This document shows positions 1,964 through 16,562 of a stretch of DNA of 64,000 nt, piece by piece. The DNA is taken from positions 1 through 64,000 of the forward strand of contig JAPORY010000044.1 of NCBI GenBank assembly GCA_026709985.1, written 5' to 3'. The translations under genes and the position numbers were made by a program. The notes beneath the pieces are model-generated. The model searched no databases. It had not been told where the DNA came from and was given only the letters and a program-made list of their open reading frames with translations. Numbering within the stretch: the first letter of the stretch is position 1; each line of letters opens with the position of its first letter. The DNA is from Aestuariivita sp. (lineage in GTDB: Bacteria > Pseudomonadota > Alphaproteobacteria > Rhodobacterales > Rhodobacteraceae).

Positions 1964-2035
1964 GAGATATCTCCTTTTGATAGACTTTAGATATATGTCG
2001 TTTAGCGTGTATACTAACAGGGTGAAGTGACTACT

Positions 2036-2055
2036 CCCCGCCCTAAAGGACGGGG
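2036..2055. repeat. IS605 subterminal hairpin, tnpB end
   Basis: Imperfect palindrome reading CCCCGCCC-TAAA-GGACGGGG on the plus strand, with one C/A mismatch in the stem. An almost identical sequence occurs at the other end of the element in the same orientation. In this family such hairpins are the sites recognised by TnpA, and at the tnpB end they form the scaffold end of the omega RNA. Confidence 0.8.
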
Positions 2056-2066
2056 CTTCTTGCTTC

Positions 2067-3236
2067 TTAGGCGACCGAGGGTAATATGCTCGTCTTATGC
2101 CAGCCTCCACAAGCAGAGACGCATAGCCCTGCCGACTTGAGTTTCAAGATACCTTGCTGCCGAATATTCGGGGCCGCGTTGAGATCGCGATCATGCTCGG
2201 TACCACAGGTTGAACAAATCCATTGTCGCACTGACAGCGGTGAGCTTTCGATTTTCGACCCGCAGCAAGAACAGGTTTTGCTCGACGCATACCATGGATC
2301 GATCTTCACCAGATGCTTGCCCGCCCACGCCGCCTTGCAGACCAGTTTGCGGACCAACTCGCCCCAAGACACATCGGCAATATATTTGGCCAGCTTTCGG
2401 TTCTTGAGCAGGTTTTTGACTCGCAGCGTCTCCACGCCGATCGCTTGGCTTTCGTCAATCAGTCGTCGCGACAACTGATGCTGAAAGTCGTTGCGTGTGT
2501 TCGCCGTTTTTTCATGCGCCTTGGCAACCAGCACACGCGCCTTGGTGCGATTGGCGGCGCCGTTCTTTTTGCGCGACAGCGACTTTTGCTTGCGCCGCAA
2601 GTTTTCCGACGCCCGCTTAACGAAGCGGGGGGTTCGCTGCTTTTCTCCCGTGCTGACAACGGCCAGATGCGACAGTCCCAGCTCCATCACAGTGATCTTA
2701 TCGCCCGTAATCACCCGAACCGGCTCCGGCGGAACTTGACGATCATCACACCGGATCGAGGCATCGTATTTCCCCGTTGGCGTACCGGTAACGGTCACCG
2801 TCTTGATCTTGCCAACAAGGGCACGGTGCAATACCGCCCGAACCGTACCAACTTTGGGCAAATACAAGGCCGTGCCATCAACGACCTTCACGCGCCGCGG
2901 GTACGATAGCGCTTGCTTGCCGCGCTTACTCTTAAACCGCGGATAGCCCCCTTGCCGCCGAAAAAACCAGCGAAACGCCGCATCTAAATGGATCACTGAT
3001 TGCTGTAAGGCCTGGCTGTCAGCGGCTTTAAGCCATTGCGTATCCGCGGCCACGTTCAAATCCAAAAGCCGATCCAACAGCATCCTCTTGCTGATGCGCT
3101 CGCTGCTTTCCGACCACGCCGCCTGCCGCCAGTTCAAGGCAAAATTATAAGCCCATCGCATCGCGCCAAACTGAAACGCGAGCGACTGACACTGGTCGGG
3201 CGTCGGATACAAACGGACTTTGGTTGCCTTCAACAT
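2067..3236 (-). CDS. tnpB: TnpB, RNA-guided nuclease homologue with altered RuvC-I residue
   Basis: Full-length TnpB (389 residues) of IS200/IS605 elements, the ancestor-type of Cas12. The order is an N-terminal OrfB_IS605 helix-turn-helix region starting MLKATKVRLYPT, a wedge/REC-like region, then a split RuvC nuclease with a zinc ribbon. The zinc ribbon is visible as C322-x2-C325 and C341-x2-C344. RuvC-II Glu is at 269 (IGVETL) and RuvC-III Asp at 351 (HDRDLNAA). The RuvC-I motif reads VMELG, with Glu185 (codon GAG, 2682-2684) where the family has Asp in the x-I-D-L-G motif. That change would be expected to impair or abolish cleavage, although Glu can sometimes bind metal. The frame is otherwise uninterrupted beside a ruined tnpA, which suggests either recent decay or retention for another role. 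Confidence 0.9.
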   Translation of the reverse strand: MLKATKVRLYPTPDQCQSLAFQFGAMRWAYNFALNWRQAAWSESSERISKRMLLDRLLDLNVAADTQWLKAADSQALQQSVIHLDAAFRWFFRRQGGYPRFKSKRGKQALSYPRRVKVVDGTALYLPKVGTVRAVLHRALVGKIKTVTVTGTPTGKYDASIRCDDRQVPPEPVRVITGDKITVMELGLSHLAVVSTGEKQRTPRFVKRASENLRRKQKSLSRKKNGAANRTKARVLVAKAHEKTANTRNDFQHQLSRRLIDESQAIGVETLRVKNLLKNRKLAKYIADVSWGELVRKLVCKAAWAGKHLVKIDPWYASSKTCSCCGSKIESSPLSVRQWICSTCGTEHDRDLNAAPNIRQQGILKLKSAGLCVSACGGWHKTSILPSVA

Positions 3237-3258
3237 CGGGTCATTCTATCACTCGACT

Positions 3259-3679
3259 ATGGATATCTCAAGCCAATATCGCACCAGTAGACAGTGCGTT
3301 TGCTTTCCCTGTTCACTTGATATTGGTCACCAAATACCGTCGCAATGGACGCTCTGATCTCACAATACCGAACTTGAGACAGATCTTTGACACGGTCGGC
3401 AACGACTTCGAAGCAAAGATGATTGAGTGCGATGGAGAAGACGACCCCATCCCTTTGCTGGTCAGCGATCGGCCAAACGTCTGACGCTCCAAACGGGTCA
3501 ACAGCTTGCAAGGCGTATCCAGCAGGTGTTGACGAACTTTCCGACCTGAAGTCACGGGACGCTATCGCAACGGCGTTCGGTGGTCACCTTCCGACTTTGC
3601 GGCCGCGTGTGGCGGAGCACCCCGCAACGTCATTCGCAAATAGGTCGAAGATCAACGCTCCACTCAAAAGCGGCGCTAA
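3259..3679 (+). pseudogene. tnpA: Decayed IS200/IS605 TnpA (Y1/HUH transposase)
   Basis: Reading across frames gives a recognisable TnpA. The first part is frame 1 from ATG 3259 (MDISSQYR). A frame change near 3300 leads into FPVHLILVTKYRR, then the DGEDD region, VNSLQGVSSR, TGRYRNGV and FAAACGGAP. Three stops interrupt the second frame: TGA at 3482, TGA at 3530 and TAG at 3641. The HUH motif, normally D-D-H-x-H-L-L, reads DDPIPLL, so both catalytic His codons (CAY) have become Pro (CCY). The TAG at 3641 sits where the catalytic Tyr codon is expected (IRK-stop-VEDQ). No active transposase can be made. The assignment rests on motif resemblance across the whole length of the family. Confidence 0.85.
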
Positions 3680-3697
3680 AGAGTTTGCGCCTTATAT

Positions 3698-3717
3698 CCC
3701 CGCCCTAAAAGACGGGG
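3698..3717. repeat. IS605 subterminal hairpin, tnpA end
   Basis: CCCCGCCC-TAAAA-GACGGGG, the partner of the hairpin at 2036-2055, in the same orientation and differing only in the loop region. It lies about 20 bases past the tnpA remnant. It supports the element boundary near 3720-3730. Confidence 0.8.
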
Positions 3718-3730
3718 TTTTACGGCGCGA

Positions 3731-4488
3731 TGGATAAAATTATCTAGCACGCTAGCACGGCACCAAAAGTCTGCGTGGTCGATTATCAACACTCTATTCG
3801 GTATCAATTGCTAAAAACTTGATACCGCTCAATTGTTATACGCACAAGAAGCAATCTATCGCCGGTTGCTAGCCGACAAATAAGGCTGGGTAAAGCCGCG
3901 AAGACGCAAGCTGATGATAATCGCCATTAATTAATTATTTGTTGCCCAGTTGCGGCAATTCAGCAGGCAAGGTCGCAAGAAAAAGTAAAATGCGCTCGGC
4001 GTCTTTAACAAATTCAGCCGTAACTGCTTAACCTCATTTGAGACATCTGGTTCTTTGCGATATTCGTTAATCATGGCGGCGTTTCATTTAAGGGCGATCT
4101 GGATGTCGACGATTTGATGATAGCCGAGGGAGTCAAGTCTTGATATCCAGCAGTAGGCTTGGGCGAAGTGCTGTGTACCAAAAGTGGCACCAAAAGTATC
4201 AACACGTTCTCAGAAAAAATGCTTACACGTCTCAATACATAGGATAGGCCGCACAAAACAAACTCGCTCTCCAGTAGCGGCTGAACAGCCGTTTATCTTT
4301 TAATGGGTCGGACGCTTTTCTTAGTTCGCCCTTTCTCAATGGCAGCGAAATGACCTCCGCAAATTATCGATATGCCTGAACCGTCATGACCATAGTCCAG
4401 ATAGATCAAAAATTCAGCTCATGCCAAAAAATGACGACTTACGGCCGCTTGCCCACTGATTTGATCAAGAATTTCGAGTAGCTTTGCG
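3731..4488. other. Intergenic, possible gene remnant on minus strand
   Basis: No intact gene. On the minus strand, around 3940-4030, one frame gives a short protein-like end (FVKDAERILLFLATLPAEL, then a few residues and a stop), but stops and frame changes lie just upstream. This may be the tail of a lost gene next to the IS element. I cannot name it. Confidence 0.35.
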
Positions 4489-15509: not shown

Positions 15510-16562
15510 ATGGGAATATTTGTCCTGAAAAGAATCGGCGTGATGTTTCTGACCGCGCTTTGTTTGACGTTTGTCGTATTCTTTATCACCAATCTTTATC
15601 CTAATCTCGAAAAAATTGCCAAGACCCAAGGCAACTTTCGAATGTCGGAAGCCGAAGTTGAACGCTACCTTGCGGCCAATGGCTATAGCCAGCCAATATT
15701 GTTGAAATATGCCCAATGGGTTGGCATTGCACCCGGGTGGATAACGGAAATTGATGAGGGGGTTCGGGGTCGTTGTTTCATCGGGACTGTTTCGTCGGTA
15801 GAAAAACCAACCTCTCGCCAATATTGTGGTGTTCTGCAAGGCTATTGGGGGCATTCGACTGTCTTTAAGGAAGACGTTGGGCCGTTGGTCATCGAACGTT
15901 TAGCCTTAACCGGCAAACTGATGTTTTGGGTGCTGCTATTGATGCTGCCGTCAGCGCTTTTGGTCGGGGTATTGGCCGGGATGCGCGAAGGATCCAAGAC
16001 TGATAGATCATTATCAGCATTCTCAATTGTTACCACGGCAACGCCAGAATATGTTTCTGGTGTAATTTTTATTGCCGTATTCGCGTCCTCGGCGGTTGGA
16101 CTGAAGTGGTTCAAAGGCACTGCGACAGCAGCGATGGAGGATGCCAGCTTTGCGAATTTTTTTCTTCCTGTATTCACGATTGCGCTTTACGGCATGGGAT
16201 ATATTGCGCGTATGACCCGAGCATCTATGACTGAGGTGATGACGGCGCAATTCATACGCACAGCGAGGCTCAAGGGCGTATCCTTTCGAGCAATCGTGCT
16301 GAAGCACGCCCTGCGAAACGCCTTGATCGCACCTTTTACCGTCATTATGCTGCAATTTCCATGGCTACTTAACGGTGTAGTCATCGTTGAAACTCTATTC
16401 AATTATAAGGGGTTTGGCTGGCTGTTAGTACAAGCGGCTGGAAATAACGACATTGAGTTGTTGCTAGCCGTGTCGGTGGTTTCAGTTGTTGTTGTTCTTG
16501 TAACGCAACTCATCTCCGATATCGGCTACGCATTCCTCAACCCTCGAATTGCGATATCGTGA
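15510..16562 (+). CDS. Oligopeptide-type ABC transporter permease (DppB/YejB-like)
   Basis: First membrane subunit of a peptide-type importer, 350 residues. It has TM1 near residues 8-30, then a long periplasmic loop (about 30-130) containing two Cys (GRCFIG and QYCGVL) that could form a disulfide. Five further helices follow, with the EAA coupling loop at TARLKGVSFRAIVLKHALRNAL. That loop is longer than in ordinary DppB but resembles larger YejB-like permeases. The start is ATG 15510, as the TTG just before it is weaker. The next permease begins ten bases after its stop. The substrate is unknown. Confidence 0.85.
   Translation: MGIFVLKRIGVMFLTALCLTFVVFFITNLYPNLEKIAKTQGNFRMSEAEVERYLAANGYSQPILLKYAQWVGIAPGWITEIDEGVRGRCFIGTVSSVEKPTSRQYCGVLQGYWGHSTVFKEDVGPLVIERLALTGKLMFWVLLLMLPSALLVGVLAGMREGSKTDRSLSAFSIVTTATPEYVSGVIFIAVFASSAVGLKWFKGTATAAMEDASFANFFLPVFTIALYGMGYIARMTRASMTEVMTAQFIRTARLKGVSFRAIVLKHALRNALIAPFTVIMLQFPWLLNGVVIVETLFNYKGFGWLLVQAAGNNDIELLLAVSVVSVVVVLVTQLISDIGYAFLNPRIAIS

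What the first reader, a model, noticed from the sequence alone, without database searches (positions are those of the whole stretch)
2067..3236. TnpB with Glu in place of the first RuvC catalytic Asp
The RuvC-I motif reads VMELG (codon GAG at 2682-2684) where TnpB proteins have Asp. RuvC-II Glu269, RuvC-III Asp351 and the zinc Cys residues are all kept, and the frame is open for all 389 codons. TnpB-derived proteins with damaged RuvC sites have been described as RNA-guided repressors. This copy could be an early or partial case, or simply a dead transposon gene.
Basis: partly seen in the sequence, partly recalled or inferred. Interest (0 to 1): 0.65.

Follow-up and report, generated by a model that had tools for sequence, protein, structure and literature searches.

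The report
Decaying IS605 transposon with mutated TnpB
This is one copy of an old bacterial jumping gene that has stopped moving, and the unusual amino acid in its nuclease (TnpB) is a one-off change in a decaying gene, so it is ordinary rather than a new RNA-guided gene switch.

Summary
In detail: the 389-codon minus-strand tnpB (2067-3236) has GAG (Glu185) at 2682-2684, where ISDra2 TnpB has its RuvC-I Asp. The repressor reading is not supported.

All 159 aligned relatives (21-68% identical) have Asp there; Glu is a lone variant. The window copy also has Val183 (Gly in 158 of 159) and 8 lone departures at 97 columns otherwise invariant in its 16 nearest relatives (others 0-4; Fisher p=0.001). 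Its terminal-branch dN/dS is 0.38 against 0.095 in relatives (LRT 12.2), not distinguishable from 1 (LRT 2.7).

The element's transposase gene tnpA is dead: both HUH histidines read proline, the catalytic Tyr codon is a stop, and there are two more stops. The genome holds four other tnpB remnants, three other tnpA remnants and several short non-autonomous derivatives, but no intact tnpA was found. The two congeneric genomes lack tnpB. The omega-RNA scaffold is largely kept, but the guide has no second match in the genome.

Most likely this is a stranded IS200/IS605 element whose tnpB is in early decay. Exaptation is not fully excluded, because the frame is still open.

The parts
2027..3737 (-). 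IS200/IS605-family element, about 1.7 kb, with divergent tnpB (-) and tnpA (+)
   Evidence: Similarity to unrelated insertion sites stops at 2027 (universal right end '...GGGGAG[CT]AGTCAC') and at about 3737-3740 (left end next to TTATCC)
2067..3236 (-). tnpB, 389 aa, open frame
2682..2684 (-). GAG, Glu185 in place of the RuvC-I catalytic Asp
2688..2690 (-). GTG, Val183 in place of a near-invariant Gly two residues before the catalytic position
2430..2432 (-). Glu269, RuvC-II catalytic residue, kept
2184..2186 (-). Asp351, RuvC-III catalytic residue, kept
3305..3655 (+). tnpA (Y1 transposase) pseudogene
   Evidence: PF01797 65.4 bits over model positions 5-121 with 3 in-frame stops; read against an intact TnpA
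3446..3454 (+). HUH motif lost: Pro-Ile-Pro (CCC ATC CCT) where intact TnpA has His-Val-His
3641..3643 (+). TAG stop at the catalytic Tyr codon of tnpA; further in-frame stops at 3482-3484 and 3530-3532
   Evidence: coordinates read
2027..2138 (-). omega-RNA scaffold (overlaps the tnpB 3' end), largely intact
2007..2026 (-). predicted guide TTCACCCTGTTAGTATACAC, host DNA beside the right end
   Evidence: no second site in the genome
3732..3737 (-). TTATCC at the left end, shared by copies at different sites; likely target site / TAM

Best explanation
This is a stranded copy of an IS200/IS605-family transposon. Its transposase gene tnpA has been destroyed, no intact replacement was found in the genome, and the whole element family there survives as fragments and small non-autonomous derivatives. 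With the element immobile, selection on tnpB has relaxed. The Asp-to-Glu change at RuvC-I, together with the Gly-to-Val change beside it and other changes at invariant positions, is decay that has not yet broken the frame. SHOWN: the lone-variant status of Glu185, the tnpA lesions, the remnants in the genome, the raised dN/dS and the largely intact omega-RNA scaffold. INFERRED: that the Glu185/Val183 TnpB is inactive or weak as a nuclease, and that the copy has no host function.
For: Asp at the position in 80 of 80 relatives and in 79 of 79 further relatives from viral contigs. Val183 is Gly in 158 of 159. There are 8 lone deviations at 97 otherwise invariant columns, against 0-4 in each of 16 relatives (pooled 27 of 1433, Fisher p=0.0011). 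Codon model: omega of the window branch 0.38, background 0.095; LRT against background 12.2, against omega=1 2.7. Changes polarised on the window branch are 9, 10 and 9 of 241, 269 and 150 sites at codon positions 1, 2 and 3, and the window branch departs about as fast in tnpB (0.087-0.096) as in the dead tnpA (0.068-0.108). tnpA has HUH His-Val-His to Pro-Ile-Pro, the catalytic Tyr codon to TAG, and two more stops. All other tnpA matches in the genome are fragments, and four other tnpB remnants are fragmentary or frameshifted. No TnpB match in the two congeneric genomes.
Against: The tnpB frame is fully open. With the number of substitutions estimated on its branch (about 64-73), the chance of no stop codon under pure neutrality is only about 5-6%, and omega of 0.38 is below 1 though not significantly. 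So tnpB was probably constrained for part of the branch, or is still weakly constrained. The other catalytic residues, the zinc cysteines and the omega-RNA scaffold are kept.
Confidence: 0.88

Rival explanations
1. Early TldR-like exaptation: the protein has lost cleavage but keeps RNA-guided DNA binding, and represses a host or mobile-element target.
For: A RuvC-I catalytic residue is changed while the frame, RuvC-II/III residues, zinc site and omega-RNA scaffold are kept. tnpA is lost while the tnpB frame survives. TnpB domestication by RuvC inactivation is known (PMC13418256), and Cas12m2 with a non-canonical RuvC triad silences without cutting (PMC10442227).
Against: Lone variant with no clade that shares it; absent from the two congeners; relaxed rather than purifying selection. 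The 20-nt guide has no other site in the genome at up to 3 mismatches, and TTAT plus a 10-nt seed has none. The element ends and a decayed tnpA are still present. Its sites of change are spread over the protein, not confined to the nuclease centre. The adjacent genes are ordinary (ndk, aspartyl protease, holC, pepA).
Confidence: 0.05
2. The Glu variant is still an active or partly active nuclease, and the gene is a functional TnpB that merely tolerates Glu.
For: Glu is also acidic, and the other catalytic residues are kept. The frame is open and omega is below 1.
Against: No Glu in 159 relatives spanning 21-68% identity. The longer side chain and Val183 both lie in the first RuvC strand. No catalytic measurement of this substitution in TnpB was found in the text of the papers read.
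Confidence: 0.05
3. Sequencing or assembly error at the motif.
For: The genome is a 121-contig draft.
Against: Two separate codons differ (183 and 185), without an indel, in a frame that is otherwise open, and unusual changes occur all along the gene.
Confidence: 0.02

Closest known systems
IS200/IS605-family TnpB (structural reference ISDra2 TnpB, PDB 8bf8)
   Same: Aligned over residues 3-379 with E about 2e-67; HTH, OrfB and zinc-finger domains; RuvC-II Glu and RuvC-III Asp; omega-RNA at the right end
   Different: Glu replaces the RuvC-I Asp; Val replaces the preceding Gly; tnpA is a pseudogene
TldR, TnpB-like nuclease-dead repressors (PMC13418256 and the work it cites)
   Same: A RuvC catalytic residue is altered while the RNA-binding and DNA-binding parts and the guide scaffold are largely kept
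   Different: No conserved clade, no associated cargo gene, no identifiable guide target, relaxed selection, element ends and tnpA remnant still present
Decaying IS605 elements and PATE-like derivatives in Halanaerobium hydrogeniformans (PMC7290912)
   Same: Many broken tnpA copies paired with tnpB, recombined remnants, and short ends-only derivatives that keep the left end, the last part of tnpB and the right end
   Different: A different host and sub-family; here most tnpB copies are fragments as well
Pseudomonadales MAG 277c_35 element (L007/L064) and IMG/VR element (L054)
   Same: Closest tnpB relatives found, 65-73% identical in the matched pieces, same right end and same scaffold
   Different: Canonical Asp at RuvC-I

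Membership tests
IS200/IS605 TnpB | OrfB_IS605 and Cas12f1-like TNB (zinc finger) domains | tested here: met
   Pfam above cut-off; PDB TnpB match
IS200/IS605 TnpB | Complete Asp-Glu-Asp RuvC triad | tested here: not met
   Glu-Glu-Asp; Asp at RuvC-I in 159 of 159 relatives
IS200/IS605 TnpB | omega-RNA scaffold ending at the right end, with guide beyond it | tested here: met
   Scaffold conserved with compensatory pairs in 10 sequences, e.g. AU to GC in the closing stem; expression not tested
IS200/IS605 mobile element | Functional Y1 HUH transposase | tested here: not met
   HUH to Pro-Ile-Pro, catalytic Tyr to stop, three stops in all; no intact copy found elsewhere in the genome
TldR repressor | RuvC inactivating change conserved across a clade of orthologues | tested here: not met
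   Lone variant; no TnpB match in the two congeners
TldR repressor | Purifying selection on the gene | tested here: not met
   omega 0.38 against 0.095 in relatives; not different from 1
TldR repressor | Guide matches a second genomic site, typically a promoter | tested here: not met
   No other site at up to 3 mismatches in 20 nt, none with TTAT plus 10-nt seed; targets outside this genome not testable
TldR repressor | Stable association with a non-transposon gene | tested here: inconclusive
   Neighbours are housekeeping genes; the element is absent from the syntenic ndk locus of congener G001, so an association could not be assessed over several genomes
TldR repressor | RNA-guided DNA binding without cleavage | not testable with these tools
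   Needs protein and RNA experiments

The most novel reading that the evidence does not exclude
A very young, single-lineage TnpB exaptation caught before fixation: the Glu185/Val183 protein binds omega-RNA (its own or that of the genome's standalone derivatives) and blocks rather than cuts its targets.
Probability: 0.05. Interest if true: 0.5.

Novelty: new member of a known kind. Interest (0 to 1): 0.12.

Why it matters
It matters little as it stands. It shows that an altered RuvC residue in an open tnpB frame is not by itself a sign of a repressor: conservation across orthologues, selection on the branch and a guide target must be checked first. If the exaptation reading were true, it would show the first step of the TnpB-to-repressor transition.

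Tried and rejected
Glu as a conserved clade feature: rejected, 159 of 159 relatives have Asp. A frameshift or gene-conversion origin of 'VMEL': the codons GTG ATG GAG CTG align base for base with GGN-NTN-GAY-NTG of relatives without indels, so point changes suffice. A guide target elsewhere in the genome: none. Own-genome copies sharing Glu: only the C24 copy spans the site, and there the codon reads Ser with Gly183 kept, so the changes are independent. A shared early death of tnpA: the C24 copy has different lesions (Gln-Val-Tyr at HUH, Cys at the Tyr position), so each copy decayed on its own after insertion. PADLOC hits to Cas12f/Cas12u models reflect shared TnpB ancestry only. The single-sequence fold of the omega-RNA region is not more stable than shuffles (z about -1); the comparative fold is the better support. 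Structure prediction was not run, since the alignment to solved TnpB already places the residue.

Full report
What is there. The minus-strand ORF 2067-3236 encodes a 389-residue TnpB. Residue 185 is Glu, codon GAG at 2682-2684, and the alignment to ISDra2 TnpB (PDB 8bf8) puts it on the RuvC-I catalytic Asp. RuvC-II Glu269, RuvC-III Asp351 and the four zinc cysteines are kept.

The element. BLAST against related elements at other sites shows where homology stops: at 2027 on the tnpB 3' side, with the universal right end GGGGAG[CT]AGTCAC, and at about 3737 on the other side, next to TTATCC. A tnpA gene runs divergently on the plus strand (PF01797, 3305-3655). Compared with an intact TnpA (Methylovirgula plasmid), its His-Val-His reads Pro-Ile-Pro, its catalytic Tyr codon is TAG at 3641-3643, and there are two further in-frame stops at 3482 and 3530. 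It cannot code for a working transposase.

The rest of the genome. Four other tnpB remnants are present (contigs C24, C76, C100, C68); all are fragments or carry stops, and they group with the window copy in a nucleotide tree, although the nodes inside that group are weakly supported (28-60%). Three other tnpA matches are fragments. The assembly is a 121-contig draft, so an intact copy in a gap cannot be excluded. At least five copies of a roughly 300-bp derivative (four with a recognisable TTATCC left end or part of it), and three ends-only sequences of about 50 bp, carry the same right end. Such non-autonomous derivatives are known for IS605 elements (PMC7290912).

Is Glu conserved? No. All 80 relatives aligned from bacterial genomes, plasmids and a virus contig have Asp, as have 79 more from IMG/VR. 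Gly183, two residues before, is Val in the window and Gly in 158 of 159. Among the 17 closest sequences, the window copy has 8 lone departures at 97 otherwise invariant columns; every other member has 0 to 4. Pooled, that is 8 of 97 against 27 of 1433 (Fisher p=0.0011). The columns of related sequences are not fully independent, so this p-value is a guide only.

Selection. In a codon model with the tree fixed, the window's terminal branch has omega 0.38, against 0.095 for functional relatives (LRT 12.2) and 0.71 for the fragment copies; omega=1 for the window branch is not rejected (LRT 2.7). Changes on the window branch, polarised by relatives, fall almost evenly on the three codon positions: 9, 10 and 9 of 241, 269 and 150 sites. 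The window branch departs about as fast in tnpB as in the dead tnpA. On the other side, the frame has no stop, which under full neutrality for the whole branch has only about 5-6% chance. The fair reading is strong relaxation, with neutrality for part of the branch; this is not proof of complete neutrality.

omega-RNA and guide. The scaffold is shared by ten elements and folds into a common structure with some compensatory pairs; the window version differs from the others at few places. The guide would be the host DNA at 2026-2007 (minus). It has no second match in the genome at up to 3 mismatches, nor has TTAT followed within 3 bases by its first 10 bases. Expression was not testable.

Orthologues. 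The two other genomes of the genus have no TnpB match. In one of them ndk is followed by an ABC-F ATPase gene, the aspartyl protease, holC and pepA, with no element. In the window the element and non-coding DNA stand between ndk and the protease instead.

Conclusion. The evidence fits a stranded, decaying IS200/IS605 element. The D-to-E change is best read as one of several decay changes. Whether the Glu protein cuts DNA was not tested. A young repressor is not formally excluded, but nothing specific supports it.

Noticed in passing
own genome C49:24604-24711 (-), C18:52041-52151, C72:13621-13731, C28:96857-96966, C75:318-426; loci L136-L140: A roughly 300-bp repeat family that keeps a short tnpB remnant (a RuvC-II region reading VATL) joined to a nearly complete omega-RNA scaffold and right end, inserted at different sites: non-autonomous elements that could supply guide RNAs in trans.
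   Followed up: partly
own genome C12:3966-3997 (-), C69:14227-14258, C17:30023-30049 (-); loci L142-L144: Ends-only sequences of about 50 bp: TTATCC, left-end start, one hairpin, right end AGTCAC. They look like minimal PATE-like insertions.
   Followed up: partly
L177 (IMGVR_UViG_3300012344_000001): A viral-contig TnpB whose RuvC-III Asp is Gly (DRGINAA) while RuvC-I Asp and RuvC-II Glu are kept; a better place to look for a nuclease-dead TnpB than the window copy.
   Followed up: no
window 3740-4488 compared with L154:2661-4505: The ABC-F ATPase gene that lies between ndk and the aspartyl protease in congener G001 is missing from this position in the window (no match above background there); the element may be linked to its loss.
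   Followed up: partly
window 16141-16317 (-): Rfam RF02647 Cis52_sRNA (described from Ruegeria), 91.8 bits, well above the gathering score.
   Followed up: no
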